Of a stretch of DNA of 64,000 nucleotides, positions 4,692-45,056 are shown in pieces (position 1 is the first letter of the stretch; each line of letters starts with the position of its first letter). A model generated the notes under the pieces. It did no database searches and was not told the DNA's origin. It was given only the letters and a program-made list of their open reading frames with translations. This DNA is from Branchiostoma floridae (lineage: Eukaryota; Chordata; Leptocardii; Amphioxiformes; Branchiostomatidae): contig NC_049981.1 of assembly GCF_000003815.2 (NCBI RefSeq), positions 31,895,349-31,959,348 on the forward strand, given 5' to 3'. The translations under genes were made by a program, and so were the position numbers.

Positions 4692-4747
4692 TCAGTCCGA
4701 GTCCTCAGCCTCAGCACCTCCACCCTCCGCTTGGGAACTGCCGCCGT
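4692..4747 (-). CDS. Copy A terminal exon (acidic tail)
   Basis: The acceptor CACACAG is followed by a Gly/Ser/Glu/Asp-rich tail ending A-E-D-S-D and TGA at 4692-4694. The exon is 56 bases, the same length and phase as 30074-30129 of copy B, which is why I trust such a short exon. Confidence 0.65.
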
Positions 4748-16700: not shown

Positions 16701-17918
16701 TACAAGAACACTTATCATTCCGTTGTTCTATCAGTGCAAAGGGGTCATGACTGCAGGTGACATTTCGGTTAAGATGCCGTCCAAATATTCAAGCAAAGAA
16801 GAATCTACCCCACAGGTTTATTCCAAGCGTAGTGATATAAGATGAAAATGATTCAGTTATACGACAGACTTGACGTGATTGTACGGTTGTTTCTACAGTC
16901 CGCTGATTACATTATGTAACAGCCATGAAATATCCATCCTCACCAGTTTGTCTGCAGAGAGCGTCACGCACATCCCAGGCGATGCCTTCCATCCCCCTGA
17001 CAACACTGCCGGGCATCGTCTCCTCAACCCCGTACCGCTGGACCCGCCTGGCCGGCGCCTCCAGGGTTGGGTACTGCCGGCTGACTAACGTGCCGAGCTC
17101 ACGGAAGTCATCCTGGTTATGGTCCAGCCAAATGACGTATCGAGGCTTGTTGTTCCTCACGGCAGTTTCCAGTCCGACCGTGAGCGAGGACTGGTCAGCA
17201 AGCAGGTGTCTGCTGATCACGGGCACGACAAGTTTCACGCTGCCGAGGGTCAGTGTGGACGTGAGCTGTGCGCGACTGACGTCACCAGGAGTGCCTGTGA
17301 CCTGCTGACAGGAGATGTCTGTCTGGGGTAGACTGTAATACACGCCCAGATCCCCCAGCTCCCTCACCAGCTCCCTGACGAACTCCCCATCCTCTGCTGC
17401 GTGCAGGAGGACAACACGCGGACCTGGTAGGGAACAACAGGTTTACAATGTCAATATGTTTGATCCAAGCATATTTCAAAATTGCGAATATTTTATCTTG
17501 CCATTGTTAAGAATGTGCCACGTGCATAGAAACTAGACCAGACAATCTCGTTTAAAAGTTAACCTTACGAATCCTAGTGACTAGTTGTAAGATACCAAGT
17601 AAAAGTACCTAAACCAGTCAGATAGAATTTGGAGAAAGTGAAAGTTGATTACACAATATATAAAGGCTCATGAGGGAAAAATGGAAACATTATTGCAATC
17701 TCATTTCACCGGTAGTTAGGATATGTTGCTGTATTTTTAAGTAATTCATGGTGAAATCAAGGCATAATAAATGCCATGCGGTAAAACGTTGTCAATGACA
17801 GGCATAGTATAATAAACTCGGGTTGAAAGCTATTAAGTTGGACTAATAGCACTGAAAGATAAAAGCCATTGTAAACACTTTGATGTAAAAGTGACCAATG
17901 TTACTCACCTGTTTCCAT
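4692..17918 (-). CDS. Copy A: TIR-CARD-ROC-COR-Death-ZU5-UPA-GT4 gene, disrupted by two frameshifts
   Basis: Seventeen coding exons were placed from splice sites and alignment to copy B: 17909-17918, 16944-17423, 16335-16471, 14496-14543, 14017-14257, 11364-13138, 10333-10601, 10011-10072, 9395-9624, 8937-9190, 8432-8569, 8134-8299, 7787-7897, 7232-7360, 6931-7005, 5373-6604, 4692-4747. Phases are consistent except inside two exons, where one base is missing relative to copy B: about 12669, at the end of the ROC GTPase, and about 6042, in the middle of the glycosyltransferase. Read as written, translation would stop at 12615, leaving TIR-CARD-ROC of roughly 500 residues. Either the gene is decaying or truncated, or these are single-base assembly errors; the rest is open and well conserved, which leaves the second possibility alive. 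It differs from copy B in three linker exons instead of one, and in a diverged UPA region. Confidence 0.75.
5090..5275. repeat. Foldback inverted repeat in the last intron of copy A
   Basis: The left arm (about 5121-5176, containing gtgagaag...ggcatccgccatat) and the right arm (about 5197-5245) are inverted copies and would form a hairpin. A third, lone left-arm-like copy lies at about 4878-4930. The same hairpin is in copy B at 30215-30400, so it predates the duplication. It is probably a MITE-type remnant. Confidence 0.6.
5373..6604 (-). CDS. Copy A GT4-type glycosyltransferase exon (frameshifted)
   Basis: The exon encodes a GT-B fold, GT4-family-like domain. The N-terminal half has the CTSKGGIST glycine-rich motif and a GRKEASIQDDIG segment; the C-terminal half has SIGRVRN, LKGHD and AEPFGLVGLEA, which holds the E-x7-E motif typical of retaining GT4 enzymes. 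Copy B reads through as one frame. Here one T is missing (plus-strand ccttgaagg at 6037-6045 versus ccttagaagg in B), so the N-terminal frame ends in a stop after about 10 altered residues and the C-terminal half lies in another frame. Six extra bases nearby are in-frame. The donor is 5371-5372. Confidence 0.75.
6931..7897 (-). CDS. Copy A linker exons (DSG motif and basic, NLS-like)
   Basis: Three small phase-1 exons (7787-7897, 7232-7360, 6931-7005) link UPA to the glycosyltransferase. The first has repeated D-S-G motifs (DSGESDSGLSS), the second a basic run TRRKRKSSR, the third GKKMK and MKRKAKR. Copy B has only one exon here (32134-32241), which shares just the DSGLS core. The basic clusters resemble a nuclear localisation signal, and DSGLSS fits the DSGxxS phosphodegron pattern; both readings are inference. 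The acceptor of the first exon (ending CCAAAAAG) is weak but is the only one that keeps frame. Confidence 0.55.
8134..9624 (-). CDS. Copy A ZU5 and UPA exons
   Basis: The four exons are 9395-9624 (ZU5, starting SLRLPGEGKY, with CEDVEGPVDILLPH), 8937-9190, 8432-8569 and 8134-8299 (rest of ZU5 and UPA, with the KGSLFGPV motif). Lengths and phases equal those of copy B exactly (230, 254, 138, 166 bases). The first exon is almost identical to B, while the next three are strongly diverged in protein, keeping mainly the HVV, TRF-KGSLFG and RNGL landmarks. ZU5-UPA modules occur in UNC5, ankyrins and PIDD1, where they mediate intramolecular packing and partner binding. Confidence 0.7.
9549..9895 (-). 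repeat. 131-bp tandem repeat across the ZU5 exon acceptor (copy A)
   Basis: There are three direct copies with a period of exactly 131 bases (the landmark cagcgggtag starts at 9549, 9680 and 9811). The leftmost contains the real start of the ZU5 exon; the two to its right repeat the acceptor, the first ~75 coding bases and the adjoining intron. Each copy keeps a usable CTCCTCAG acceptor, so alternative splicing is possible, though 131 is not a multiple of three. Confidence 0.85.
10011..10072 (-). CDS. Copy A small exon between Death and ZU5
   Basis: The 62-base exon codes EYRDALPLQEVSPEMTGDTQ plus the first two bases of the next Trp codon. It sits between a CTATCCAG acceptor and a GTGAGT donor. 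Copy B 36470-36531 has the same length and phase. Confidence 0.65.
10333..10601 (-). CDS. Copy A Death domain exon
   Basis: The exon is 269 bases (phase 1 to 0). The peptide has the Death-domain pattern: AVGEEWELWTRLGQDLGL, a helix with LDNIEVKY, then AFQVLKAWRTKTP and a final LEETLQNMGKPDLAADV helix. The W-x-x-L-G-x-x-L signature and the I-x-x-I-x-like helix 3 position are visible. Position after COR recalls the ROC-COR-Death order of DAPK1. Copy B is 37579-37847. Confidence 0.8.
10813..11039. repeat. MITE-like inverted repeat in copy A, absent from copy B
   Basis: The ends are inverted copies of about 58 bases (left accatttatgtcaaa; right tttgacataaatggt), total 227 bases, inside the intron before the ROC-COR exon. 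The matching intron of copy B is only about 330 bases and lacks it. A separate 17-base inverted pair (ctcaagcaactggatat near 10913 and atatccagttgcttgag near 11284) shows nested insertions in the same intron. Confidence 0.7.
11364..13138 (-). CDS. Copy A ROC-COR GTPase exon (frameshifted)
   Basis: One large exon carries a Ras-of-complex (ROC) domain and its COR dimerisation domain. GTPase motifs visible are the P-loop GLTEAGKTS, DFGGHQ (G3) and GTKVDL (G4). COR follows with PYLHFRVCQDVGAAAG, LHVTGQILFY and DPTIILTLFKQIF. About 30 residues after G4 one A is missing (near 12669; ggaggacaag versus ggaggaacaag in copy B), moving the COR part into another frame. The exon is 11 bases longer than in B: 12 inserted in-frame minus the one missing. 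Confidence 0.82.
13139..14016. other. Intron of copy A between CARD and ROC exons
   Basis: 878 bases, AT-rich, with no exon seen. It is shorter than the corresponding interval in copy B (39945-41747), which has gained repeats, palindromes and an N gap. Confidence 0.45.
14017..16471 (-). CDS. Copy A CARD-like death-fold exons
   Basis: The exons are 16335-16471, 14496-14543 and 14017-14257. The first codes FLADNMNLPAVLTRLEQ and ENQLSPAEVRDIQ, the last RQEPYDWLVRVLREKGQDF. This L-x-x-x-N...VLxxLxxxxxLSxxExxxI...ydwLvrvLrexGqdfL pattern is that of a CARD six-helix bundle, split by introns. For the 48-base middle exon, the acceptor TACGCAG keeps frame in A; copy B must use a different acceptor (next AG), because the same one would read TAG. 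Confidence 0.7.
14967..16050. mobile_element. About 1.08-kb insertion specific to copy A
   Basis: Alignment to copy B breaks after 14966 (tcatat) and resumes at 16051 (ttatttttgttc), so this block was gained by A or lost from B. Near its ends lie perfect 12-base inverted repeats, tctcttcgccaa (14968-14979) and ttggcgaagaga (16020-16031). Inside are three related units with ataactcgagaa and ttggtaggtg motifs, the same family as at 54700-55050 and 60920-61270. No transposase reading frame is visible. Confidence 0.65.
16944..17423 (-). CDS. Copy A TIR domain exon
   Basis: The 480-base exon joins exon 1 (17909-17918, coding MET) to give METGPRVVLLHAAEDGEFV. TIR features are the opening beta strand VVLLHAAED, a box-2-like GTPGDVSRAQ, VVPVISRHLLADQSSLTVGLETA and YVIWLDHNQDD. 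The Glu in GLETA aligns by pattern with the catalytic Glu of NADase TIRs (inference). The exon ends C-R-Q-T with a GTGAGG donor. Confidence 0.72.
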
Positions 17919-22666: not shown

Positions 22667-23109
22667 TTAAAAGAGGAAATGGTGTGAGGAAATGGGACGG
22701 TGCGATCCAGTACCTGGGACAGCCTGGCATATGAAGCGGCACGTAGAGCCGCATGAGTAATCGTGCCACGTGTTTTCGTTCATTGTGTGGTAACAAACGC
22801 ATTCTTCGCGGCCACCAACGTTGTTCGGTTGTCCCTGACCCCAGGAGTTGTAGGTCCCAAGTGCAGAACCATCCAACCACTCAAAGCGTCCCTCTTCGCG
22901 CCGATCGTGCAGGCCGATCCAGAAATTCCCCTTGTCGCTCACGGACATGTACAAGGAGATCAGGAAGGCGTCTGTCTCAGCGTCTCGGGGCATGGCGAGG
23001 GTGCCGCCGTCTTCACCACAGGCCACGGCCGCATCACCGAAGGTCTTACGTGTGTTGAAGGCTTTGTAGCAGATTTCACGCCACATTGCGTAACCTTCAG
23101 GACAAGATG
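22667..23109 (-). CDS. C-type lectin domain exon
   Basis: Single exon with the canonical CTLD marks: CPEGY, a CYKAF strand, W-I-G-L (FWIGLHDRREEG), the Ca-site loop QPN (WGQGQPNNVGGREECV), and TWHDYSC in place of the usual W-N-D. Six or more cysteines fit the standard disulfides. EPN usually marks mannose and QPD galactose specificity; QPN is intermediate, so the ligand cannot be assigned. TAG/TGA-type stop at 22667-22669. Confidence 0.88.
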
Positions 23110-30073: not shown

Positions 30074-30129
30074 TCAGTCCGAGTCATCAGCCTCAGCACC
30101 TCCGCCCTCCGCTTGGACACTGCCGCCGC
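30074..30129 (-). CDS. Copy B terminal exon (acidic tail)
   Basis: Codes GGGSVQAEGGGAEADDSD, with TGA at 30074-30076, after a CCGCACAG acceptor. Same length and phase as in copy A. Confidence 0.7.
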
Positions 30130-33100
30130 CTGTGCGGGGTGTTTAGGTTATGAGCAAAATCAGTAGGGAAGACAAAGGATCGATTTAAAGGCGTTGGTGT
30201 AGATTAAACTACCATGGAGAATCCATAGAAATCTAGAAATTTCAACTGATACGACTAGTTTGCTGCTGGTGAGAAGCTTTTATACGGCATCCGCCATATT
30301 TCTTTGACACTTCAGGGCTGAAATAATATGACAGATGCCGTATGAAAGCTTCACACCAACAGCAAACGTAGTCGGGAGTATCAGTTTCCTATATACCATA
30401 TATATATCCCAAGTGGATCGTTGGATATTGTCAATATGCAATATGCAAAACCATCACTACCATCCGCTAAATTGAAAGACAAAACCATATTCTACTGTCG
30501 AATAAAGCATTAAATTGTAAAGATATTCTACTATCAATATCATTTGAAACATTTGAATGGCAACCATACATCCACATTATCGGTCTTTGATGAAGTAATT
30601 TCTTACCAGTGATGCCACAGGCCTGTAGGAACGTTTGTTGAGACTCTTCCCAGTATTTGGAGGCCAGCAGTTTCTCCCTGAAGGCGCGGGCTTCCGCGAA
30701 CTCTGACTTGGCGTTCTTGAGGACGTCCTCGATTCTGTCTGCCCACTTCTCTGCATCAGCGTCGGTCGCGGTGTCTCCCTTCATCTTGACGATACAGTGG
30801 CGGAACGTGGGCTGCCCCAGCCTGTCTGATAGCTCCTCTACCAGCTCGGCAAGGCCCGAGTGCTCTGAGATGAGGACGGGAACTCCTGCCGCGATGGCCT
30901 CCAGGCCGACCAGCCCGAACGGTTCGGCCCGGGACGGCATCAGGACCAGGTGACAGGCCTCCATGTCTTGGCGGATCTCCTCTTGAGTGCCGTACGGAAG
31001 CAGGGTGGGTTTGACCCGGCCGGATCTCAGCTTCTCCTCCAGGATTCTCTTGCTATCCTTGAAGTCGTTCTCATCGATGCCGCGGACTCTCAGCCTCAGT
31101 GTGTACTGATTGTCAAGCCGCTGTGCCGCCTTGTCTATGGATCCTGCGGCCCTGTCATGACCTTTCAGCATCTCCACATTCCGCACCCTGCCGATGGACA
31201 GAACCACTCTCTCCGGTTTTCGGACTGTTTCTTCTTCAAAAGTCACATTTGCTTCACGGAACACCTTAGAAGGCTCCGGTAGGAAGGTGTGGTGAGTCAC
31301 GTGATTCCGACGGAGGAACCTGTCGTAATGGCGGTGAATGCGCGGTCCTACCGAGAAGACGACATCAGCCTTGCCAATGTCGTCCTGGATGCTGGCTTCC
31401 TTCCTCCCCACACCCAGGGCCTTCTCGTCACTCTTGTAGTACTCTGTCTCCTCTGGCGCCACGTGACCGAACATGGCGAGTTTGGCGTGTGGAAATCGCT
31501 CTTCCTTGATCTTCCTCGCTGCTCTACTAGTGACGTCAACATGGCCCACAATGCAGAAGATATTTGGTGGAATGTGTGGAAAGTGATGTTTGTGGTACAC
31601 AGTCAGCCACTCTAAAGACGGCTTCGCGCTGCTGTCGGGATCGAGACGAGGTTTGAGGAGTCTCACTCCGTCACGTTCTGCATCCCTCTCGTCTTGCTGA
31701 CTTGCCTCCAACACGGTAGCGTAGACCTTGGCTCCAGCGGCGGTGAGCACTCGCGCGGCATTGAGGTTGATGGTGGAGATTCCGCCCTTTGATGTGCAGA
31801 ATTCATCTCCAACCAACAGGACTGATCCTTTTCCTTGAAGATAATTTCGTTTGCAAAGGGAAAGAAGAAGCATACATGAAGTGGCATTGAAAAACTGACC
31901 CATATTAACTATATCTAAGATTGAACTGAAGATACTTATGAAATAGTATAAAAATATTTCCCTGCTTTGTTGGTCTGGCTGAAACTTTACATAAAACAGC
32001 CAAGGTTGTCAACTTTAGTATCCATACCTGTAATGTAGTTGCTGAGTCTCTTCGTTCTATTTGTGTAAAGGACTAACCCTGGGAAAATAGAATGATTACA
32101 CAATCAATACGTTACAACGTAAAAAAATAATACCGGTAATGTTTGAAGATTCCAGTTGTCGCCTCACAGACTCCACCAACTCCGTGGGTGTGGAAAGGCC
32201 GCTGTCAACATCTTCGGCAGTGTTGCCTCGCTTGTAGTGGCCTGGGAGGATTATAAGAGCCGTAAAGAGGGACGAATGATTATATTTTGTGGCCATTGTT
32301 TAGAATTGATTTTAAAGTTTTGTAATTATATGTCTAGGACATTTGATACTTCAAAAATATTTGTAACACTGTTTCAACTTTATAAATATTTCCCTGGTCC
32401 TGTAAAACTTTGGAAATATTCATCGTGTGGAATTGGATACTTCTAATGGTTTCTAAATAATGATAACAGCATTCTACCATTATTTACCATTTTCTACCAT
32501 TTTCTACCATTTTTTGTAAATGGTTCAGTGGGCTGGAAAGATAGAAATTCACACATTCTTGCAAAGTATGGTTGGGTGCCATGCAACAATGGCCCACCAC
32601 AAAGGATTCACCAGTGCCCAGCAGTGAAATCTAAAAATATACAAATACAACATTAGGGCTTACTTTTATGGGGGCAATAAACTAATTTAACCATTTGGCC
32701 AGGTTTACCATTTTTTGTAAATATTTGTAAATGTGAAATAATCACACAGAGGTTTTACAATTATTCTAAATAAAGATATTTTTGTACAGTTACTTTCTAA
32801 ATGTTTCTAAAATATTCAAAGGAATTCAAATATATGAGTACTTTCTCAGTCATTTTTTAAAAAAATAATTTAATTATTGTGGCTCAGATATTCTTTTATT
32901 CAAAATAATTCAGACTAATTATAAATATCGCCTAAAAACCCTCATGGTGTCTTGGAATGGACTCTACGTTAGTTCACCAATATTTTTTTTCTATTTACTT
33001 TTGGACAGACGAGGACAATGTGGCGCTGCACTCAAGTTTTTTGTAACTTATATTAACAGTGCCACATACACGGTACAGACAGAAGGTAAAGGTAGTCTGT

Positions 33101-36100
33101 TACGTCCCCGACGGAGACAGGTACCCATTTTTACACCTGGGTGAAGTGAGGAAGGTCGTGTAAAGTGCCTTTGCCAAGGACACAACGTCGGAGGCACCGC
33201 CATTATATCAAGATCGAAGTAGCCCAGAAATAGCTCTGCAACAGACAGCTGGATCGGAATCATTTAGGTAAACGTCCGGAACCTTTTCTGTATACGTTAC
33301 GTTTACCGATATTGATGACTTGTATAAGATATCTATCCTATTTCAAGGATATGATAACACTTTTACTTACATGTCATGCAATAATTTTCCATTCTATAAA
33401 GATTGAAATTACCCAGGGTTAGCTCTGCAACATGTTCTTTTGCATCATTGTTGACCTCCTTGAGCAGTTCCAGGCTTAGTCGCGAGGTGGTGCTGCTGTT
33501 CCAGATGTCGGACGTCACTTCCACCCTGAACGGCTCGTAGAATTTGTTCGTGTCGAACGTGTCTTCAAACATAAGGCACTACAATGTATGGCAAGTGGGA
33601 CGATTGTTAAAAATTCTGTGACCAACATGCGGAACCTACAAATGTAAGATCACGAGCAAACACACAAATGCATATACACATGCATACATTCACACTTTAG
33701 TTTTAGTCCCAGATATGCTTGTGCTCTCTTGGCACGCCTTCGCATTGGCACCTGCAGCTTGAATGGCAGTCTTTTCAGTCGTGGGCTAACTGGTAGTCCA
33801 GCCTGTAGCTGCGGGTGCCAATGCGAGTCGATTTCTCATTTCCTACTTCACTGCCCATTACATAACAATTCTCGTCACACTCTCTTCGGCAAACTTTTTA
33901 GGATCGTAGGACATCTTTTCCATATTTTCTCTCTTTCTGATGGTGAAATCAAATATTCACTACTTTTTGGTACTTCCCTTTGCAACTATTCCACAAACTG
34001 TTTGATTATGTCTTCAACTCAGAACTTCATTGTGCAAACTGGCCGTTTCTAACCATGTTTTTTTTCCGTGTCCTACCAAAATTTCCGGGGGGGGGGGGTA
34101 CTAGGACTTGCGCTTCCACCAGTCAATACACTAGTATACTATTTGTACAGATTTACTGCACCTTGTCAATCATATGTTATTTTTCTTTTAATAGCGGCAC
34201 CGATATAAGTTGTCTTAACTTGAGTGGGCCGCTACTTCTCTGTTATTTTGCCTTTATGTGTTTGTTCAATAAAAAAAATCACACACATTGACACACACAC
34301 ACACTCTTATACACACATGCATAAATACATATATGCGCGCGCACACACAAACACAGACACACACACATGCATTCACTGACACACACAAGCAGGGACATAC
34401 AAACGAACATGCACGCACACATATCCACGCTGCCACATGCGCAGGCACACTCACACACACTTATCACGCATCAAATGTTTTGATTATGTAGCAATATCAG
34501 CCTAGGAAAGTCATTGGTCAAGAATATAGTAGCATTTCTAGAATTAGAAAAAAATTTCAACAGACCTGGGGAGATGAAGACACAGACATGTCTCTGCCGT
34601 TTGTAATGCTTCCTTCTAGATAGTAAACAGCACCTGGCTTTAGCTCACAGGTCCTGTAGTCACATGGTGCAAAGTTCCACCCTTTCTCGTTCTTTTGAAG
34701 GGACTGTCGGGGCAGAGTGGACATATATTTAGGATCTATAAAACGAGCGACATTAAAACAGGCCTCCCACCCATGCCCAACTTGCCTCGCCAATTACCAG
34801 GACGTCTAGTGACCAGGTATGTATTTAGGTAAAAGCAAGTACCCTGCCAGGTGTCATAGGGTGAAGATCTAGAGTTTTATATTTACTCGTTTCTCTCAAG
34901 GAAGGGTCCATATGACTAAACTACCCTTGTCTTGATAAGCAACATTAAAAATGGAAAATGACATCGATTTGAATGCAATGATGGTCGAACGGTCAAAAAG
35001 TTGGGTAAGTCAATTTTTTGTGTTGGAAATTACTGTTTAACTTTATCAACTATGACCTTTATGACCTACCTCATGCATGATGGTAGTGTTGGAGACAATG
35101 TAGACTTTCAACCTGGAAAAGTCGGACTCATTCACAGCAGCAAAAGCCGTCAGCAGCCCGTTCCTGGAGATGCCCAGGACTTTTTCTGTCCTCCCCACCG
35201 CCCCAAACAGGCTGCCTTTCTTGAACCTGGTCACCGCGTGGGAGGGGGTGAGTTCTGTAACCGGCAGCAGCTCGGGGGAATCTCCAACCACGTGCACGAC
35301 TTGGAGGTCTTCTGGGTTGAGTTCTGGAAAAAACATGTGAAGACAATGTAAGTATATCATACTGACATCTTCACATGTTTTTGATAAAAATTATGTAAAA
35401 GAGGAGCAATAGGAACATAGCTGTGGTGAGATCTTGAAAAAATGTAAGGGACCGTGATGACCGTTTTGGACAAAGTGGCATTGTGTTAAAGATTCACAAA
35501 TTGAAAAAATGAATTTTTAGCTTCAATTTTCCTTACCAGTTGCATCAGCCAGGCACAGCACGTGCGGCAGTAGGATGTCCACCGGCCCCTCCACGTCCTC
35601 ACACTGGATGGAGAAGAGCGGACCCACCGGCATCCATTCCCCCACCTGCTGCCAGTTGTCGGACCAGTTCGCACTACTGTAGGTCACGTGCAGCGGGTAG
35701 GGCGTCACCACGCCCAGGTCGGTCCGTCTGCACAGGTACTTCCCTTCGCCTGGCAGGCGAAGGGACCTGAGGAGATAAACACAGGTATTGTAGCCAGGTG
35801 TTCAAACATACAGGTGTGACACAGCGGGTAGGGCGTCACCACGCCCAGGTCGGTAGGTCTGCACAGGTACTTCCCTTCACCTGGCAGGCGGAGGGACCTG
35901 AGGAGATAAACACAGGTATTGTAGCCAGGTGTTCAAACATACAGGTGTGACGCAGCGGGTAGGGTGTCACCACGCCCAGGTCGGTCCGTCTGCACAGGTA
36001 TTTCCCTTCACCTGGCAGGCGGAGGGACCTGAGGAGATAAACACAGGTATTGTAGCCAGGTGTTCAAACATACAGGTGTGACACAGCGGGAAGGGCGTCA

Positions 36101-39100
36101 CCACGCCCTGGTCGGTCCGTCTGCACACTCAGGTACTTGCCTCCGCCTGCCTTACCTGAGGAGGTAAACACTGACTTGAAAATCCTCCAACTCAGCAGTA
36201 GTGTATGGCAGATGCATATGAAAGATGCTTGTTCACTCACTAAAGATGTAGCACTAAAAGCCCGGGTTTCTCTCAACTGCATTGAACGCCAAGCCTAAAG
36301 ACGGCAATAACCACATGCGTCTGCTTGGATAACCGCCAATGATTTTTGTACTAAGTTTTGTAAATAGGAGTGCAATGATAATATGGCATTACCACTGTCT
36401 TAACTTCTGAAAGTTATAACGTACCATTACCATAATTGCTGGTGGTTGCATGTTGAAATGGCTACTCACCATTCGGTGTCTCCGGTCATCTCAGGACAGA
36501 TCTCTTGTGACGGCAAGGCATCACGGTAGTCCTGTATATATGGGATATTGGAGAAGCTGGTCAGAAACATATATGTGGAGAGTCCGCTTGACCATTCATG
36601 TACAGTACCATGCGTTAGACTTATTTCAGACTTTTCAAGAACGAACACGGGAAGAAAAGGCTATGAGTGATGTCATTCCAAATTCGTAACCAATTAGTGG
36701 CATCATCATTACATACAACATAATTCAGATAAATCACTATCATCCGGTAGGTTATACGGTCCTTATTACCCAAAAAGGCTTGTATCAGAAATTCTTTTCT
36801 CCTGTATCATGACACAGAAGTTTTACTTAACTGAGCACACCCCAGTTCTTCCGCGACCGGGTTCCGCGGGTTCCTCGAGGTAGTTTGCGGCAAAACATGT
36901 GACGAAAGGCTTTCTAGGGTCTATGGTTGAGTTTACATTTCTCATTATTTACTGCGAAATGACATTAAACACTTACATGGCTGAAAAGCGTAGGAAATGG
37001 CGTGTTTTTGGTGCAAATTGTGTTTCGACCCTGATATTCTTGCGCCTTGAGTGTAAACAGGCTCCGTGACCCAGATAGATCTGTTAGGTGCTGTGTAAGC
37101 GAAATTGCAATGCCGCACGCCGTGGATGATTCAAAAACTGCAGTATTAGAATTTTCTTTATAATTGGCTCGATTACTCGCAAGCTATCTCTTTCTGACAG
37201 TATCAGTCTTGTTTGTTGGAAAAAATTTTAATGGGTTTTATCCAATGCGAAAATGCGCAATTTTGTGCACTATTTTTGACATGAAAATAACTTTTTATCC
37301 CTCTATTCTTTTAAATCAGAGAAGTTAAAAGATCGGAACTCAGTAGGTCTTGTAGCTGAAGGAATATCCTCTCGCCCCATATACAGTTATTTTGTTTCAG
37401 GATAATTCCCTGGTAGAGATGGTCGCTAGACTTCAGGGTGCACCGCCTCCAATTGAAACCCCAAATAAACTTAAGTCATGAAGTGGGTCGGCGGGGGGTG
37501 TTCGTTCTTTAGTTCACATTGTATATATCCCCCGTACATCTGCAGCTAAAAAATTCAATTCGGAGTTCATTGACGAACCTTATACACCCCCTGTACGTCT
37601 GCAGCCAGGTCCGGTTTGCCGATGTTCTGCAGTGTTTCCTCCAGCTGCGGCAGGTAGTGGAGCGGTCCGTGGGGGGTCTTGGTGCGCCACGCCTTCAGCA
37701 TCTTGAACGCCTGCTGGGTTTCCTGGAAACTGTACTTCCCCTTTATATTGTTCAGCACGGCCCTGTTCAGCCGCAGCTCCTGTCCCAGCCGGGTCCACAG
37801 CTGCCACTCCTCACCAACAGCCCTGCTGACCTGGTACAGCCGGTTGTCTGAACAGAACGGAAATCAATTTGTAGACTGAAATATACAAGACAGTAATTTT
37901 AAAAAAGATGTTTCCGAGGAAATGTATCTTTATGCTATGTAATGAGATGACAAGAAAAATACATGGGAAGCACTGATAGCGGTACCACTTGATAAAAGGA
38001 GAGAATATGGGCATTTTTCAAAAATGAAATTGAAAATAAGATATAGGAAGCATTAAGTGGAATGAATTATATCTTTGGCAATCAAGTACGTTCTATATAG
38101 TATCTATATTAGACATACATTCCTTATATGTACCTACCTATAAAACCATGATATTCCTTTACTGTATATTTCGTACTTACCGATGAAGTACTTGCCAATG
38201 ACGTCCTCTGACGTTCTGACGTCAGGAATATCGAGTGGCCGTTCCCAGTTTCCTTCAGATATTCTCAACAAGTCACTCGCCACGTGACGCCTCACAGCCT
38301 CTATAGTGAGCGACTTTGTTGCTTCTCCACTTCCAACACTGTTACTGAAGTACAAGGCAGGAAACTCGTCCCAACAGGCCTCCATCACCTTCGCTACCGT
38401 CTGAGCCTGGCGCCACGCCTTCTCCGGCTCTCCCCGGATCCGGATTTCTTCTCTTGTAGGGAAATGGCGGTACATGACGTCTTCTGCGTTCTCTCCAACA
38501 TGAACGACAACTGTGTCCTTGGTGAGGAGACGGCGTGTGGTCTGCTCCATGGACAGGATACGGGAGATCATGGTTTCCGGTAGACCCAGAGGAGGCTCTT
38601 GGCTGTACTCTATGGTAACAGAGATCTCCTCGCCGCCTGATGGCACAACCTCTGGCCAGCAGCGCGCCACCTCGTCAGGCTGGGCGGCAGGAAGCTCTGT
38701 TGGAAAGATCACCGACCCTGAGTAACACAGGCCGAAGTGCTTCATCAGGGGAAGGAGACTGTTGAAAGTGGCAATGTTGTCTCCAAGCAGGTTCTTCATG
38801 AAACTGTCGCTTGCCCTGCCCGTCTTCAGGAAGGACTCCCTGTCTTCAGCAAAATGCGCTCTGGTATGCTCAGAGAGAGACTCGGCTATGCTGTCCAGAT
38901 ATGCCGGTAGGTCATGCCTGAAGATCTGCTTGAAGAGTGTGAGGATGATGGTTGGGTCCGGGAAGACCAGATCTTCCATCCCCCTGATGTTGTTGTAGAA
39001 CAGGATCTGTCCGGTCACGTGCAGATGGCTGAGCGCGTTCAGGACGTCTGACTCCTTCATCCCTGCAGCTGCTCCGACGTCCTGACAATCCCTGACATGA

Positions 39101-42100
39101 AGGTACGGCCGTCCTGAAGTCTTGATGTTTTCTGACAGTTCCGTCCAGGAAGCCGACAGCTCTTGGCGGGCAGCAGGGAACAATCTCTCGTCTTTCACCA
39201 TTTCTGCCATCTTGTCGCACAGAGCTTCGATACCCTGGAACGTCTTGCTGCTGACCGGGATAACCTGTACGTTTAACACACCTTTGGGTCGTCCGTCAAG
39301 TAACTTCTCCAGTGACTCTTTCTTGGCCAAGATGTCGTCTCTTGTGAGACCGTAGAAAGGTCCGGTCATGTCTGATTTACCGTCCGCTGCATCCACCGCC
39401 TTCTGGCAGAGTTGAATCTCTTCGTTCAGCTTGGCTTGTATTTTACTCTCAGCGACATGGATGCCTCTCTGGATGGAGGAACAAGCTGCTGCTATCATCT
39501 CCTCGGCCTTGTCTGGCGGGAACAGGTCGACTTTGGTCCCTACAACAAGGATAGCCGGGTTGAACACGTGGGAAGTCACGGATGTTAGCCACGTTCTCAC
39601 TCGTTCCTGGAACTCTTCTGACTTGTATCCTGGCAGGTCTACATTGAGAATGTGCAGGGCCTGACGTGTCAGGAAGAACCGGTGCGTGTAGTGGTAGATC
39701 TGGTGACCTCCGAAGTCGTACATCTCGTACTTGACGTTATTCTTGGTGTCATGGTAAGGGATGACGTCAACACCGATGGTTCTGTTAGTTTCAATCTCCA
39801 CGTGACCTTGACCCTTCATCATACAGTTGAGCAGACTGGTCTTCCCTGCCTCAGTCTGTCCCAGAATCACACACTTGACTTCGGAAGGTGTTGTGACGTC
39901 ATCCGCATGCCCGCCGGGATGACGTAGATGTTTCTGCACGGCTTCTATAGCAGAAAAAGTTACTACATTAATTTGCGGCGTCCTCAGCATGCGTACCGGG
40001 GCAGTGCAGATGTTTTTGCATGGATACTGGAGTAGAAACGGACACATCAAGAATACAGATAACAATACAACAGTAGACAGCACACAATTTAGCACGTAAA
40101 TTGGCTATGATTATGGACAGTTCAAAATAACCTGTTTCTTACATGATAATGTGTCCTTCTATGAAAGCAGAAGAGAGGTGACGGCCGCGGGAATTTGAGG
40201 CGTAACAGGTAAACAACAGNNNNNNNNNNNNNNNNNNNNNNNNNNNNNNNNNNNNNNNNNNNNNNNNNNNNNNNNNNNNNNNNNNNNNNNNNNNNNNNNN
40301 NNNNNNNNNNNNNNNNNNNGAAGGCCAGACCAATGTCATAACCAATATATATTATCATATAGCCAGGCGCCGCGGACCAATCAGAAGGCCCCGTTCCACG
40401 TTGGTTATGACGCCGTAACACGCAGATTCAGGCCAGGCAGGTGGGTATCGCTCCCCTGATTGGTCAGAATGAATCGACACCGGCACCGGCCTGAATCCAC
40501 GTGTTACGGCGTCATGCGTCAGCAGAAAGGAATGCTTTGTACAGTGTGCAGTCCATGTTAGAGTTACATGGGGACCAAGTCTATTGTGATGGTCCAGTTG
40601 CATTTAACAAGTAACATCATCTTTGTTAGTATTTAAAGCCTTGAAACCGACCTTGATCCAAACATTAACATTATTACTGTTCACATTCCTTCAAATTTAT
40701 TGAATATGTACAACTATAACTTAGGATTAAATAGCAACACACTTGTCCCAGCAGAAAGTAAAGCTTTGTACAGTGTGCAGTCCATGTTAGAGTTACATGG
40801 GGACCAAGTCCATTGTAATGGTCCAGTTCCATTTAACAAGTAACATAATGAATCGACATCTTTGTTAGTATTTAAAGCCTTGAAACCGACCTTGATCCAA
40901 ACATTATTACTGTTCAAATTCCTTCAAATTTATTGAATAGCAGCACACGTGTCCCAGCAGAAGGGAATGTGTCATTATGTCAAGCCTTGGAAGTCTTGAA
41001 TAAAGGATGTATGTATTATAAAGGAATTTGTTGCTTAAATGGGGCATTAACCCTTTAATATTCGTGATATTTATAGATAAGCTATTTTAGACATCGACTT
41101 TAAAATTACACATTAAAACTTTATATTGGAGATATCGGGTTGACTTAGGCCCGATTTAGACAAAGGTCGCTTTAACCGATCGCGACCTGTGTCGGTTAAC
41201 CGTCATATGACGGTTAACCGACCTGTGTCGGTTAACCGTCATATGACGCTTAACCGCCACCGGTCTACAGAGGAAATAAGGGGCGTATGACGGTATTTCC
41301 GCGAACCGACCTGAGCCACCTCCGGACCTGCTCCTGGGTCGGTTCAGCGGGGGGCCCGTGGCGGTTTCTCTCGCGTGTAAAGAGAAACCGTCACCGGTGA
41401 CGGTAATAGGAGGTCATGGATCATATGCTAATGATATGCTAACGAGCCCGTAGCAATGGTTACTAGAGTAGAAACGGACACATAAAGTACGATTAGTTAC
41501 ACAGAAGACAGCATTTAAGTGTGGCACACTACAGCAGTCACATCAAGAATGATTACTACACCAGTGTGAGAACCTTGCGACTTGCGAATAAAATGATTAA
41601 TAGAAATACGAGGCATGATCAAACACCGTATTTTGTTTACTTTGCGTACGAAGCTAATTTAGACCTCGATTTTGCAATTACACATTAAAACTCTGTAATG
41701 GAGGTATAAAGGTTTAAGGGTAAAAATTATGCAATAACTGTGCCGACCTTGACTTTGCTGTGAGAAATGTTCCCTCTGTGCGGTTTGCTGACCAGGTTGT
41801 GCCGCCTGCTGTTCCCCGATGCCGAATTCCCGCTCCCAGTCCCGCTCCTGTTCCTCCATCTCCTCCGCCAGGAAGTCCTGTCCTTCCTCCCGCAGGACCC
41901 GCACTAACCAGTCGTACGGCTCCTGCCGCCTCCTGGCCCACAGCATGTCTACCAACCGCTCCCCCCTGCTTACTGGTGTCGGCTCCGCCTGGGGGAGGGA
42001 ACATCGGCAGGGGCGGTGTGAGCTCACAGCAACAACTATTGTATAACTGTATTCTTTCTTTGTGAATAAAGAGGAAGAACTAGGTAGGCGCATACATATA

Positions 42101-45056
42101 TGCTAATGTACAGGTACACAATTACACTAGTCATCCTCATGTATATTGTCAATGGATCATTGCTAAGCAACACGCACAGGGCGCGATTTTATACAACAAG
42201 ATCACACCTTCATGTACCGCTCAATCTGTTGCAGGTATTCTGTAGCACGTTTTTCCAGGATCTACTGCGTATGTTGGCAGCCTAGAAATTGGTAAATATC
42301 TGTCTATACTAATCCTAGTACATGTATCAATAGAATTCATTTTCTCTTACATGTGTCGGAGCGCAGTTTTGGTATCTACAATAAGCGACACCTTGCATCT
42401 CTGATCAAAAGTACAGTCAATATTTTTGCAACTTTTGACGTCGTTTCTTATTGCGCAAAGTTGAAACACTTTCACTTTCACAGTAACATTGAAGGGATGT
42501 GATTACTGACCCTGTATTTGTCAATCAGAATTCATGGTGTTTGCTGACGATATCTATAATTTCTAAATCTAAACCATATAATTAATAGACTTATTAATGC
42601 AAATGAGCATTAGGCCGACGAACAACAGCTCATAACTCTGGAGGTGTAGTCTCGCTCAGACAGTATTATATAAACCTCATATTGATTTTTGTTCTTAATA
42701 AAACTATACAGCGTAGGTACCTAAAATTTACAAACTTATTTCAATTTAATTATAAAAACATATCGCAAAGTCTGTGGTGTTGTGTGTTGGATGGCTCCAA
42801 AAGGAACACATATAGAGAAGTGTGTGCTGCTGCGGACCATGTAATGAACTTTGTGCTAAATACAGATCAAGGCGGACGTATCAAAAGCCTATAAAACAGT
42901 ATGAATGTGAAGTACATGTGGCAGTGATGTTGTTATACCGACTCTGATAATTGCCACTTCCACCATTACCTTACCTGGATATCCCGGACCTCAGCCGGAC
43001 TCAGCTGGTTCTCCTGTTCCAGCCGTGTGAGAACAGCTGGGAGGTTCATGTTGTCAGCCAGGAACTCACGAGTTAAGAGCAAGGCCTGCCAGCACGGCAA
43101 CCTCAGTTTACCTGTGGAGATGGACAAAGGCACACGTCAGTCTAACCTGGTTCGGTCTATGTAGAAACATCATATTAATTTACAGAGTATCTAAATTTGT
43201 CACATTGCTCCAACAAAATACACAACAAAGAAAACACTACATGCTCTGCAGTAACACCAGTTATTCTATCGCCTTTAATCAGTTCAAATTACTCATCACT
43301 GCAGATAGAATTTCGGCTGACAAGCCGTCTAGATAGTGAAGCAAATACCCACAGGTGTCTATGCATAGTGCTAATATCAAATAAAAATGATGAAGATTGA
43401 TGAGATTGTTGATCTGTTTCCACAGTCCGCTGATTACATTGTGCACGTCATAGAGTGGAGTGGAGCCATATAGTTCCCGTTCCTTTAGTGACGGGTTGAA
43501 TGAAATTTCTAAACTGGAACCATGCGGCTCAAGATGTCTTACTGAGGGACGGCAGCGGTGCGAAAGATGTCTGTAGTTTGAGGAATGAGTCTACATTATG
43601 TACCAGCCATGATATGTCCACCCTCACCTGTTTGTCTGCAGAGCGCGTCACGCACATCCCAGGCGATGCCTCTCATCCCACTGCCAAAAGCACTGCCGGG
43701 CATCGTCTCCTTAACCCTGTCCCGCTGGACCCGCCTGGTCGGCGCCTCCAGGGTTGGGTACTGCCGGCTGACTAACGTGCCGAACTCACGGAAGTCATCC
43801 TTGTTCTGGTCCAGCCAAATGACGTATCGAGGCTTGTTGTTCCTCACGGCAGTTTCCAGTCCGACCGTGAGCAAGGACTGGTCAGCAAGCAGGTGTCTGC
43901 TGATCACGGGCACGACAAGTTCCACGCTGCCGAGGGTCAGTGTGGACGTGAGCTGTGCGCGGCTGACGTCACCAGGAGTGCCTGTGACCTGCTGACAGAA
44001 GATGTATGTCTGGGGTAGTTTGTAGTAATCTGATGCCAGACCCATCAGCTCCTCCGCCAGCCTCCTGACGAACTCCCCATCCTCTGCTACGTGCAGGAGG
44101 ACAACACGCGGACCTGGTAGGAAACAACAGCATCACATTGGTAATATGTTTCATTCATGAATATTTCAAAAGTTTGAATATTTTATCATAACATTGTTAA
44201 GAATGGTGAGATCGTGTGGTGCAGCGGCGGCATTTGTGCCTCGTGACCGAGAGGTTGCGGGTTCGAATCCGACTGCGTGTCACCGATCTTGTGCCCTTGG
44301 GAAAGGCACTTTACACGGCTTTCCTCACTATACTCAGGTGAAAATGAGTAGCCGGTGCAATGGCCTAGTGGGTAGAGTGTTCGCCTTGTATTCGGAAGGT
44401 CGTGAGTTCGATCCCGGCCGAGTCATACCAAAGACTTTAAAAATGGTACATGCTCCTTTCTCTGCTTAGCACTCAGCATTCGGGAAAGAGTATGGAAGTT
44501 GAACACACACCACTACCAGTGGACTAGCCCCCTAGTAATTGTAGTAATTGCGTTGTGTGTGGCCCAGGGCTAATGAAACAGAGATGGGCACCGCCCTATG
44601 CGCCATCTTGGCGCGGGAAGGGTTTAACTTTTTAAACTTTTAATTGTTAATTGTGCCACGCGTATAAAAACTACACCTGGCAATATTAGTTAAACGTTAA
44701 CCTAACCAATCCTAGTACCTAGATGTAAGATACTAAGTAAAAGTACCTAAACCAGCCAGATAGAATTTGGAGAAAGTGGAAGTTAATTACACAATATATA
44801 AAGGCTCATGAGGGAAAAATGGAAACATTATTGCAATCTCATTTCACCGGTAGTTATGATATGTTGATGTGTTTTTAAGTAATTCATGGTGAAATCAAGG
44901 CATAATAAATGTTATGCGGTAAAATATTGTCAATGACAGGCATAGTATAATAAACTCGGGTTTAATGCTATTAAGTTGGACTAATAGCACTGAAAGATAA
45001 AAGCCATTGTAAACACTTTGATGTAAAAGTGACCAATGTTACTCACCTGTTTCCAT
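30074..45056 (-). CDS. Copy B: complete TIR-CARD-ROC-COR-Death-ZU5-UPA-GT4 gene
   Basis: Fifteen coding exons: 45047-45056, 43628-44113, 42975-43111, 42208-42261, 41748-41988, 38181-39944, 37579-37847, 36470-36531, 35537-35766, 35070-35323, 34566-34703, 33413-33578, 32134-32241, 30607-31833, 30074-30129. All have AG acceptors and GT donors; the sum is 5202 bases, so 1733 residues plus stop. Approximate domains: TIR 5-130, CARD 165-290, ROC 330-490, COR 500-890, Death 898-987, ZU5-UPA 1008-1270, linker to 1306, GT4-type glycosyltransferase 1308-1700, acidic tail. No signal peptide or membrane segment, so likely cytosolic. ROC-COR-Death recalls DAPK1 and ZU5-UPA-Death recalls PIDD1 and UNC5, but I know no characterised protein with this whole set. 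A role in immune or death signalling is inference. Weakest junctions: the 54-base exon and the GTCGGC donor at 41746-41747. Confidence 0.85.
30215..30400. repeat. Foldback inverted repeat in the last intron of copy B
   Basis: Arms of about 70 bases around tttgctgctggtgagaagct (30250) and its inverse agcttcacaccaacagcaaa (30346), loop of about 20 bases. Orthologous to the element at 5090-5275. Confidence 0.65.
30607..31833 (-). CDS. Copy B GT4-type glycosyltransferase exon
   Basis: One 1227-base exon codes a full two-lobed GT-B domain of about 400 residues. Seen: VLLVGDEFCTSKGGIST (N-terminal nucleotide/acceptor loop), FCIVGHVDV, FGHVAPEE, ASIQDDIGKADVVFSVG, then the C-lobe start VLSIGRVRN, LKGHD, LLPYGTQEEI, CHLVLMPSRAEPFGLVGLEA and GVPVLISEHSGLAEL. 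E1610 and E1618 form the E-x7-E motif of GT4-like retaining enzymes, which contacts the sugar-nucleotide donor. Motif retention suggests an active or ligand-binding enzyme; substrate unknown. GT4 domains like this are far better known in bacteria and in dedicated metabolic enzymes than fused to animal signalling modules. Confidence 0.82.
32134..32241 (-). CDS. Copy B linker exon
   Basis: 108 bases, phase 1 to 1, coding GHYKRGNTAEDVDSGLSTPT and then a charged helix-like stretch ending SSNIT. It shares the DSGLS core with the first linker exon of copy A but lacks A's two following basic exons. Confidence 0.65.
32460..32850. repeat. AT-rich repeat with ttctaccatt units
   Basis: Short tandem copies of ttctaccatt and ttaccattttttgtaaat lie in a copy B intron; the same interval of copy A is unrelated sequence. 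Confidence 0.5.
33085..33200 (-). mobile_element. SINE fragment (3' core) in a copy B intron
   Basis: ggaaggtcgtgtaaagtgcctttgccaaggacaca is an inverted relative of the shared SINE core at 44285-44345 (cccttgggaaaggcacttta and cacggctttcctcac). Confidence 0.6.
33413..35766 (-). CDS. Copy B ZU5 and UPA exons
   Basis: Exons 35537-35766 (ZU5 start, SLRLPGEGKYLCRRTDLGVV), 35070-35323 (LQVVHVV, TRFKKGSLFGAV, RNGL), 34566-34703 and 33413-33578 (end of UPA, CLMFEDTFDTNKFYEPFRVEV). Exon lengths equal copy A exactly. The introns here hold a LINE fragment, microsatellite and SINE core that copy A lacks. Confidence 0.72.
33695..34275 (+). mobile_element. 5'-truncated LINE: C-terminal end of reverse-transcriptase ORF plus 3' end
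   Basis: The plus-strand frame to the stop at 34050 reads ACALLARLRIGTCSLNG, then CSCGCQCESISHFLLHCPLH, the cysteine/histidine tail found at the C terminus of many non-LTR retrotransposon ORF2 proteins. A short 3' region follows, ending AATAAA at about 34268. It is antisense to copy B, inside an intron, and not present in copy A. Confidence 0.75.
34279..34465. repeat. CA-rich microsatellite
   Basis: Long runs of (CA)n with interruptions, directly after the LINE 3' end. Confidence 0.9.
35691..36165 (-). repeat. 131-bp tandem repeat across the ZU5 exon acceptor (copy B)
   Basis: The landmark cagcggg starts at 35691, 35822, 35953 and 36084, so there are four units of exactly 131 bases, the last diverged. 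As in copy A, each repeats the CTCCTCAG acceptor and the first ~75 coding bases of the ZU5 exon. Confidence 0.87.
36470..36531 (-). CDS. Copy B small exon between Death and ZU5
   Basis: 62 bases coding DYRDALPSQEICPEMTGDTE plus two bases. Same length and phase as 10011-10072. Confidence 0.65.
36660..37560. other. Intron of copy B with no recognised feature
   Basis: No exon or defined repeat seen. Much longer than the matching copy A intron (10073-10332), so mostly inserted sequence. Confidence 0.4.
37579..37847 (-). CDS. Copy B Death domain exon
   Basis: 269 bases, coding DNRLYQVSRAVGEEWQLW, TRLGQELRLNRAVLNNI, QQAFKMLKAWRTKTP and LEETLQNIGKPDLAADVQ. Matches the six-helix Death fold pattern; likely a homotypic interaction module. 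Confidence 0.8.
38181..39944 (-). CDS. Copy B ROC-COR GTPase exon
   Basis: Single open exon of 1764 bases. P-loop GQTEAGKT at residues 338-345, DFGG at 386-389, TKVD at 446-449, so the GTP-binding motifs are intact. COR follows: PYLHVRDCQDVGAAAG, HVTGQILFYNNIRG, DPTIILTLFKQIF, and a basic PTREEIRIRGEPEKAW stretch. ROC-COR is the dimerising switch of ROCO proteins (LRRK2, DAPK1, MFHAS1). There is no kinase domain here; the effectors seem to be the death-fold, TIR and GT4 parts. Confidence 0.87.
39955..40035 (-). repeat. Degenerate copy of the ROC exon start
   Basis: On the minus strand, ccatgcaaaaacatctgcac and acgcatgctgaggacgcc resemble the first ~50 bases of the ROC exon (39944 leftwards, and copy A 13138). 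It looks like a local duplication of the exon 5' end within the upstream intron; no frame is kept. Confidence 0.5.
40220..40319. other. Assembly gap (100 N)
   Basis: Exactly 100 N bases inside the intron upstream of the copy B ROC exon; real length unknown. Confidence 0.99.
40405..40516. repeat. Inverted repeat next to the gap
   Basis: atgacgccgtaacacgcag...attcaggcc (from 40407) and its inverse ggcctgaatccacgtgttac...ggcgtcat (to 40515) form about 28-base arms. Confidence 0.8.
40530..40960. repeat. Tandem duplication of about 230 bases
   Basis: The block starting ctttgtacagtgtgcagtcc (40533) recurs at 40762 and runs on through ccttgaaaccgaccttgatc and caaatttattgaat, with small indels. It is specific to copy B. 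Confidence 0.85.
41160..41420. repeat. Cluster of perfect palindromes
   Basis: 41191-41222 is a perfect 32-base palindrome (gtcggttaaccgtcat and its complement), partly repeated 36 bases on. It is followed by a hairpin cggtttctct/agagaaaccg and the perfect palindrome accgtcaccggtgacggt. The cluster is absent from the matching copy A intron. Probably the terminal region of an unrecognised DNA element. Confidence 0.75.
41748..43111 (-). CDS. Copy B CARD-like death-fold exons
   Basis: Exons 42975-43111 (FLADNMNLPAVLTRLEQ, ENQLSPAEVRDIQ), 42208-42261 (ILEKRATEYLQQIERYMK) and 41748-41988 (GERLVDMLWARRRQEPYDW, LVRVLREEGQDFLAEEMEE). Together they fit the six-helix CARD pattern, including the YDWLVRVLRE-G-DFL end typical of CARDs. 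A Gln-rich tail follows. CARDs pair with other CARDs of caspases and adaptors. Confidence 0.72.
43628..44113 (-). CDS. Copy B TIR domain exon
   Basis: With exon 1 (45047-45056) it gives METGPRVVLLHVAEDGEFV. TIR marks: strand A VVLLHVAED, box-2-like TGTPGDVSRAQ, VVPVISRHLL, GLETA with E90 in the position of the NADase catalytic Glu, and YVIWLDQNKDDF. Acceptor TTTCCTACCAG, donor GTGAGG. Residues after 130 link to CARD. Confidence 0.72.
44205..44650 (+). mobile_element. Composite tRNA-derived SINE in intron 1 of copy B
   Basis: Two tRNA-like heads lie in tandem. The first has A box tggtgcagcgg and B box ggttcgaatcc (44212-44280), the second tggcctagtgg and gagttcgatcc (44360-44425), separated by a core with cccttgggaaaggcacttta. 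Copy A reads straight through the site (17519), so it inserted after the duplication. Flanking ttgttaa copies may be the target-site duplication. Confidence 0.8.

What the first reader, a model, noticed from the sequence alone, without database searches (positions are those of the whole stretch)
30074..45056. An eight-module TIR-CARD-ROC-COR-Death-ZU5-UPA-GT4 protein in one open gene
Copy B joins three death-fold or TIR signalling modules, a ROCO GTPase switch, a ZU5-UPA module and a complete glycosyltransferase-type domain in one 1733-residue reading frame. All 14 junctions keep phase, and copy A repeats the same exon plan, so the joining is not an artefact of adjacent genes. Families known separately: DAPK1 (ROC-COR-Death), PIDD1/UNC5 (ZU5-UPA-Death), TIR NADases, GT4 enzymes. 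I know no described protein with all of them. A cytosolic sugar-transferring effector driven by a GTPase and death-fold hub would be a new type of immune or death machine.
Basis: partly seen in the sequence, partly recalled or inferred. Interest (0 to 1): 0.92.

Follow-up and report, generated by a model that had tools for sequence, protein, structure and literature searches.

The report
Lancelet GTPase-switch glycosyltransferase immune-type gene
One animal gene, in an expanded tandem family, appears to join a degenerate TIR, CARD and Death domains, a GTPase switch and a FIIND module to an intact bacterial-type sugar transferase; it looks like an immune receptor whose weapon is a glycosyltransferase, a kind already proposed in print but in a combination I did not find described.

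Summary
On the minus strand 45056-30074, 15 exons with 14 phase-consistent GT-AG introns read as one 1732-residue frame: TIR-like, CARD, ROC-COR, Death, ZU5-UPA of the FIIND (NLRP1/CARD8) type, GT4. The GT4 exon matches Pfam GT4-conflict (4e-82) and keeps its EX7E motif.

The join recurs: the same genome has 13 TIR>ROC>GT4 triplets on this contig, 12 with FIIND in between, and a second cluster with ROC-COR-Death-FIIND-GT4 (ROC 43-44%, GT4 47-50% identical).

Corrections: copy A is frame-broken in two exons. The TIR lost its catalytic glutamate (Gly in 15 of 15 copies), so an NADase is unlikely. The FIIND cleavage motif is K-G-S instead of S-F-S, so self-cleavage is doubtful.

It is not a wholly new kind. 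Kaur et al. 2021 (eLife) described GT4 effectors fused to immune modules in lancelets, and bacterial LRR-ROC-COR-GT4 proteins; this genome also has an LRR-ROC-COR exon with a GT4 exon downstream. I did not find this exact architecture in print, but could not see their figure or source data. Extra: two hypervariable patches in the TIR exon, while GT4 is under purifying selection. Function is inferred only.

The parts
45047..45056 (-). exon 1, MET + 1 nt (start codon)
   Evidence: ATGGAAACAG|GTGAG occurs in 11 of 18 fetched TIR loci exactly, in 3 more with 1-2 changes, none found by that pattern in 4 (two of the 4 overlap)
43628..44113 (-). exon 2, divergent TIR domain, phase 1-1; catalytic-Glu column is Gly; two hypervariable patches
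42975..43111 (-). exon 3, first half of CARD
   Evidence: Pfam CARD 2.8e-7 when joined to exon 4
41748..41988 (-). exon 4, second half of CARD plus linker
38181..39944 (-). exon 5, ROC-COR GTPase in one exon, phase 1-1; P-loop GQTEAGKT, DFGG, TKVD present (by eye)
   Evidence: Roc 1.7e-17, COR-A 1.7e-7
37579..37847 (-). exon 6, Death domain
   Evidence: Death 4.2e-7
36470..36531 (-). exon 7, linker into ZU5
   Evidence: conserved in L061, 75% of 20 residues
35537..35766 (-). exon 8, ZU5 (FIIND) first half
   Evidence: FIIND 6e-33
35070..35323 (-). exon 9, ZU5 second half with K-G-S where CARD8 has S-F-S, then start of UPA
34566..34703 (-). exon 10, UPA
   Evidence: UPA-FIIND 1.3e-5
33413..33578 (-). 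exon 11, UPA
32134..32241 (-). exon 12, UPA-GT4 linker
   Evidence: in frame in L061, dN/dS 0.40 on 36 codons
32028..32078 (-). exon 13, small linker, phase 1-1, possibly optional or not real
   Evidence: no convincing match in L061
30607..31833 (-). exon 14, GT4-conflict glycosyltransferase in one exon, phase 1-1
   Evidence: PF20706 4.4e-82; EX7E in 24 of 24 full-length copies examined
30074..30129 (-). exon 15, C-terminal tail and stop
   Evidence: also in copy A
4695..17918 (-). copy A, tandem duplicate with the same order; frames broken in the ROC exon (near 12.7 kb) and the GT4 exon (near 6.05 kb); ZU5b 40% identical to B and different linker exons
3..449 (-). TIR exon of a third copy at the edge of the window
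   Evidence: 76% identical

Best explanation
It is one gene of a tandemly expanded lancelet family encoding a cytosolic immune-type receptor/effector. Shown by sequence: the eight domains in one frame, GTPase motifs, the GT4 active-site motif, a TIR without its catalytic Glu, a FIIND without the canonical cleavage dipeptide, repetition of the plan at 12 of 13 sister triplets and in a second cluster, purifying selection on GT4. Inferred: the N-terminal TIR-like and CARD domains (the TIR with two variable patches) recognise or recruit; binding changes the nucleotide state of the ROC-COR switch; Death and CARD drive assembly; the FIIND holds the GT4 in check without obligatory self-cleavage; assembly lets GT4 move a sugar from a nucleotide-sugar onto a pathogen or host target, blocking it or triggering death.
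For: Gene model and phases; domain matches; 13 co-oriented TIR>ROC>GT4 triplets on C3, 12 of 13 with FIIND between ROC and GT4; L061 has the same coding exons from TIR to GT4 except exon 13, with the same phases and 0 stops in 1664 aligned codons, dN/dS 0.47 overall and 0.31 for GT4; B against 9 other GT4 copies 0.24-0.36; C191 locus L062 has ROC-COR, Death 1.8e-9, FIIND, GT4-conflict 4e-73; in 10 of 14 C3 GT4 loci no in-frame Met precedes the first strand of the domain, so there the exon needs an upstream one; GT4 proposed as conflict effector in print (PMC8195603).
Against: No transcript, protein or activity data. 7 of 13 triplets have at least one of the three big exons broken or truncated in the assembly, including copy A. 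One of 13 (ROC at C3:32284743) has no FIIND match before its GT4. Copy B itself has two in-frame ATGs 23 and 13 codons before the GT4 match, inside the preceding intron, so a separate GT4 start cannot be excluded for this copy. COR-A and UPA scores lie below their curated cut-offs. An immune role rests on domain company and expansion only. Substrate and sugar unknown. Poly(A)-like hexamers occur in two UPA introns, so shorter isoforms are possible.
Confidence: 0.6

Rival explanations
1. As above, but the FIIND self-cleaves at G|S and the UPA-GT4 fragment is released when the N-terminal part is degraded, as UPA-CARD is in NLRP1/CARD8.
For: FIIND match 6e-33; the nucleophile Ser aligns with the CARD8 Ser and K-G-S is kept in B, A, L061 and L062, 4 of 4 examined.
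Against: The motif is K-G-S; in print SFS is called completely conserved in FIINDs and the F296H mutant of CARD8 severely defective (PMC3210808, passages).
Confidence: 0.2
2. Two genes: a TIR-CARD-ROCO-Death-FIIND gene followed by a separate GT4 gene.
For: Many GT4 exons occur without ROC in the genome; close GT4 relatives on C5 (L010, L011) have no ROC match nearby; copy B has in-frame ATGs in the intron just before GT4, as have 3 of 13 other C3 loci examined.
Against: 10 of 14 C3 GT4 loci have no such ATG; the linker exon 12 is in frame and conserved in L061; GT4 follows FIIND within 1.35-3.3 kb at 18 of 20 FIIND places on C3 and C191.
Confidence: 0.08
3. A decaying, functionless array of duplicated gene fragments.
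For: 7 of 13 triplets broken or truncated in one of three exons; copy A broken in two.
Against: 5 of 13 read through all three exons and a sixth is interrupted only by an N gap; dN/dS 0.24-0.36 for GT4; EX7E in 24 of 24.
Confidence: 0.1
4. The TIR is the enzyme (NADase) and GT4 a sugar-nucleotide sensor.
For: TIR domains often cleave NAD+ (recalled).
Against: The catalytic-Glu column, aligned to AbTIR, is Gly in 15 of 15 copies while 7 of 7 aligned TIR relatives elsewhere in the genome keep W-x3-E; GT4 keeps EX7E.
Confidence: 0.02

Closest known systems
Metazoan GT4 conflict/immune proteins (Kaur et al. 2021, PMC8195603)
   Same: GT4 fused to immune or apoptosis modules, expanded in marine animals, GT4-TRADD-N in cephalochordates; proposed as conflict effector
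   Different: The text names GT4-TRADD-N-LRR fusions; here TIR, CARD, ROC-COR, Death and FIIND precede the GT4. Figure 6A and its source data were not readable, so this architecture may be in them
Bacterial LRR-ROC-COR (AP-GTPase) conflict proteins with GT4 (same paper)
   Same: ROC-COR switch followed by GT4 in the C-terminal effector position; lancelet locus L063 has LRR-ROC-COR with a GT4 exon downstream
   Different: TIR-CARD instead of LRR, and Death-FIIND before GT4
NLRP1 / CARD8 (FIIND inflammasome sensors)
   Same: ZU5-UPA of FIIND type followed by the output domain; CARD8 is the best solved relative (1.9e-6)
   Different: Output is GT4 instead of CARD; cleavage motif not canonical; ROCO GTPase instead of NACHT
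DAPK1 / other ROCO proteins with Death domain (recalled)
   Same: ROC-COR followed by Death
   Different: No kinase; FIIND and GT4 follow
PIDD1 / UNC5 (recalled)
   Same: ZU5-UPA with a Death domain
   Different: Death lies before, not after, ZU5-UPA; ROCO and GT4 added

Membership tests
GT4-conflict glycosyltransferase (PF20706) | profile match above curated cut-off over the whole domain | tested here: met
   276.6 bits against 26, positions 1-383 of 385
GT4-conflict glycosyltransferase (PF20706) | retaining GT4 motifs (EX7E, GR...K; recalled) | tested here: met
   EX7E in 24 of 24 full-length copies, B included; my GR..K pattern matched in 20 of 24, B included
GT4-conflict glycosyltransferase (PF20706) | sugar transfer activity | not testable with these tools
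   needs biochemistry
ROCO GTPases | ROC followed by COR | tested here: met
   Roc 64.2 bits against 27; COR-A 31.7 bits, below cut-off 35.3 but 1.7e-7 and in the right place; sister locus L062 passes COR-A (35.9)
FIIND (NLRP1/CARD8-type ZU5-UPA) | FIIND profile match | tested here: met
   113.7 bits against 25.8
FIIND (NLRP1/CARD8-type ZU5-UPA) | SFS/HFS self-cleavage motif | tested here: not met
   K-G-S; Ser kept, Phe missing (motif from PMC3210808)
TIR domain | TIR fold | tested here: inconclusive
   no direct Pfam match; via a joint profile with TIR_2 relatives, PDB TIRs at 4e-11; no structure model (tool off)
TIR NADase | catalytic glutamate | tested here: not met
   Gly in 15 of 15 copies
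CARD | profile match | tested here: met
   30.9 bits against 23.9 for exons 3+4; not listed in the scan of the whole first model
Death domain | profile match | tested here: met
   30.4 bits against 22.6 for the exon alone; not listed in the scan of the whole first model
Metazoan GT4 immune fusion proteins of Kaur et al. 2021 | GT4 fused to death-fold/immune modules in one animal polypeptide | tested here: met
   polypeptide inferred from the genome only

The most novel reading that the evidence does not exclude
The catalytically dead TIR has become a variable recognition head: at least 15 tandem paralogues share a near-invariant TIR exon that differs mainly in two short patches, wired through a GTPase switch and a non-cleaving FIIND to a conserved glycosyltransferase weapon. 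That would be a germline-diversified 'one warhead, many heads' receptor family in a chordate.
Probability: 0.2. Interest if true: 0.85.

Novelty: new variant of a known kind. Interest (0 to 1): 0.58.

Why it matters
It ties the inflammasome-type FIIND module and a ROCO GTPase to a bacterial-type glycosyltransferase effector in what is most likely a lancelet, and the same genome holds both this form and an LRR-ROC-COR plus GT4 form like the bacterial one. That gives a concrete series of genes for asking how bacterial conflict systems were rebuilt into animal immunity, and a GT4 exon product on which the untested 'cytosolic glycosyltransferase effector' idea can be assayed directly.

Tried and rejected
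Structure prediction of the TIR exon: tool switched off, so no fold search. Two scans of prokaryote genomes for GT4 relatives found none, perhaps because the peptide patterns were too specific; tblastn against plasmids gave 20 records, best 27-28% identity over 96-98%, one of them the C-terminal domain of a 1637-residue protein with otherwise only weak NACHT-like matches. Family search PF20706 with control genomes did not complete. I first modelled 16 exons, then dropped the 54-nt exon. 'TM' for the 51-nt exon was a working label of mine and is not supported. I first took the lack of an early Met in the GT4 exon of copy B as proof against a separate GT4 gene; one search showed in-frame ATGs in the intron just before it, so that argument now rests on the 10 of 14 C3 loci without one, and the two-gene rival was set from 0.07 to 0.08. 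In the GT4 tree (24 copies and one bacterial outgroup) the ROC-linked clades C3, C191 and C14 do not form one clade, so a single origin of ROC-GT4 is not shown; L019 is mislabelled noROC there and belongs to the C3 triplets. The Fisher test used patches chosen by eye; the fairer test is the shuffle of columns (2 of 5000 reach the observed 10-column maximum). Synonymous diversity is also raised in the patches (pS 0.31 and 0.18 against 0.05), so uneven gene conversion can explain part of the pattern. The TIR copies broken in frame (L046, L047/L048) were left out of the 15. The most variable 10-column window of the GT4 exon (4.78, 10 copies, one with an N gap there that inflates it) is about as variable as the TIR patches (4.92), so a variable patch as such is not unique to the TIR. 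Counts of genome matches are lower bounds (the tool scores only the best candidates).

Full report
What is there. The minus strand of 45056-30074 holds 15 exons that splice, phase-consistent at all 14 junctions, into 5199 nt and 1732 residues with a single terminal stop. The order is TIR-like, CARD, ROC-COR, Death, ZU5-UPA, GT4. Pfam adds two precise names: the GT4 is the family 'GT4-conflict' (4.4e-82), and the ZU5-UPA is a FIIND, the module of NLRP1 and CARD8 (6e-33; CARD8 is the best solved relative, 1.9e-6). Three large modules (TIR 486 nt, ROC-COR 1764 nt, GT4 1227 nt) are each one exon with phase 1 on both sides, which is what exon shuffling needs.

Is it one gene? The window lies in a 513-Mb genome of 431 contigs; size and count match what I recall of Branchiostoma floridae, but no call names the species. 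GT4 exon matches merge to 84 loci, ROC to 58, TIR-like to 49, all lower bounds. On contig C3, 13 places run TIR, ROC, GT4 on one strand in that order, and 12 of the 13 have FIIND matches between ROC and GT4. GT4 follows FIIND within 1.35-3.3 kb at 18 of 20 FIIND places on C3 and C191. Paralogue L061 keeps the coding exons from TIR to GT4, except exon 13, with the same phases; over 1664 aligned codons there is no stop and dN/dS is 0.47. Locus L062 on C191, where ROC is 43% and GT4 49% identical, has ROC-COR, Death, FIIND and GT4; 4 of 4 ROC-GT4 loci of C191 have FIIND between. In 10 of 14 C3 GT4 loci no in-frame Met precedes the first strand of the GT4 domain, so the exon there depends on an upstream one. 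Against: copy B itself is one of the 4 that do have such an ATG, in the intron before GT4; 7 of 13 triplets have one of the three large exons in pieces or truncated, copy A among them; no transcripts were available; the CARD-ROC intron holds a 100-N gap in copy B, but not in A or L061.

What still works. The ROC keeps its P-loop, DFGG and TKVD (by eye). GT4 keeps EX7E in 24 of 24 full-length copies examined, and GT4 dN/dS of B against nine other copies (seven on C3, two on C5) is 0.24-0.36. The TIR is different. Alone it matches no Pfam family, yet it is 40-41% identical to seven other loci of this genome, three of which were scanned and match TIR_2 (3e-11 to 3e-10), and their joint profile finds bacterial TIR structures (4e-11). 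In the alignment with the NADase AbTIR the Glu of the W-x3-E motif, which I recall as catalytic, falls on a column that is Gly in 15 of 15 C3 copies and Glu in all seven relatives outside C3 that were aligned. So this TIR is very probably not an NADase. The FIIND cleavage position aligns with CARD8: S-F-S there, K-G-S here, kept in B, A, L061 and L062. The literature says SFS is completely conserved and that F296H is severely defective (PMC3210808, passages). Self-cleavage is therefore doubtful, though the Ser is kept.

A second observation. Among 15 C3 copies (of 17; the two frame-broken ones left out) the TIR exon is almost uniform except for columns 25-34 and 144-152, with up to nine different residues in one column and in-frame indels. 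Nucleotide diversity is 0.34 and 0.29 there and 0.04 in the rest. A shuffle of columns reaches the observed concentration in 2 of 5000 trials. Between A and B the stretch upstream of the TIR exon (mostly intron 1; 1067 of 1499 nt aligned) is 94.2% identical but the TIR exon only 92.0%, with 14 of 31 amino-acid-changing differences inside the 19 patch columns. Against a simple selection story: synonymous differences are raised in the patches too, in the other 13 pairs compared the upstream stretch is more diverged than the exon, and the GT4 exon also has a variable stretch. Uneven gene conversion is a live alternative to positive selection.

How it may work. The arrangement is head (TIR-like, CARD), GTPase switch (ROC-COR), assembly domain (Death), tether (FIIND) and enzyme (GT4). 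The best guess is a cytosolic receptor that assembles on recognition and turns on a glycosyltransferase which modifies a pathogen or host molecule. Every step after the domain order and the motifs is inference.

Compared with the known. Kaur et al. 2021 (eLife; start of abstract, passages, and section 15 whole) proposed GT4 as an effector in bacterial and animal conflict systems, with GT4-TRADD-N fusions in cephalochordates, hemichordates and cnidarians, more than 500 GT4 paralogues in a coral, and bacterial LRR-ROC-COR proteins with GT4 in effector position. In this genome L063 (C14) has LRRs, ROC and COR in one open frame of at least 1249 codons (it runs off the fetched stretch) with a GT4 open frame 1.3 kb downstream, that is, the bacterial order; I did not model the splice between them. 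The C3 gene can be read as that order with LRRs exchanged for TIR-CARD and Death-FIIND inserted; the GT4 tree does not prove such descent, because ROC-linked GT4s are not one clade. A lancelet pangenome paper reports Death and TIR domains over-represented among dispensable genes of two Branchiostoma species (PMC12373286, passages), which fits an immune role for such families; the passages seen do not name this one. Listings for the architecture in print showed nothing closer than Kaur et al., whose Figure 6 and source data I could not see. Hence: a new variant of a known kind.

Noticed in passing
window 44113-43628 and L031-L048: Two hypervariable patches in an otherwise near-uniform TIR exon across tandem paralogues (dN/dS of B against eight other copies 1.0-2.1, GT4 0.24-0.36).
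   Followed up: partly
L063:2-6396 (C14): LRR-ROC-COR in one open frame of at least 1249 codons with a GT4 open frame about 1.3 kb downstream, the order known from bacteria.
   Followed up: partly
L010, L011 (C5) and L013 (C18): GT4 exons 84-89% identical to copy B without ROC or TIR matches nearby; L013 has a coiled-coil-like ORF upstream. They may be recent moves of the GT4 exon to other genes.
   Followed up: no
window 35691-36127 and 9523-9890: The first part of the ZU5 exon with its acceptor is tandemly repeated (131-bp unit, 3.3 copies) in copy B, in copy A and at several other C3 loci.
   Followed up: partly
C17, C5: FIIND followed by GT4 within 1.7-8.4 kb at four places without a ROC match: FIIND-GT4 recurs on its own.
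   Followed up: no
window 6940-7370: Copy A has lysine/arginine-rich linker exons before GT4 (nuclear-signal-like, by eye) that copy B lacks.
   Followed up: no
window 22670-23935: C-type lectin domain (2.7e-21) next to a repeated coiled-coil-like ORF, lying between copies A and B on the same strand.
   Followed up: partly
L060:999-3061: CARD (8.8e-19), TIR_2 and a below-cut-off TRADD-N-like match in adjacent ORFs: another TIR-CARD combination in this genome.
   Followed up: no
window 58694-59290: In-frame repeats of an HHENK-type unit of unknown nature.
   Followed up: no
window 17960-18500 and 45100-45700: The 5' flanks of copies A and B look nearly identical (by eye), so the duplication probably included the promoter.
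   Followed up: no
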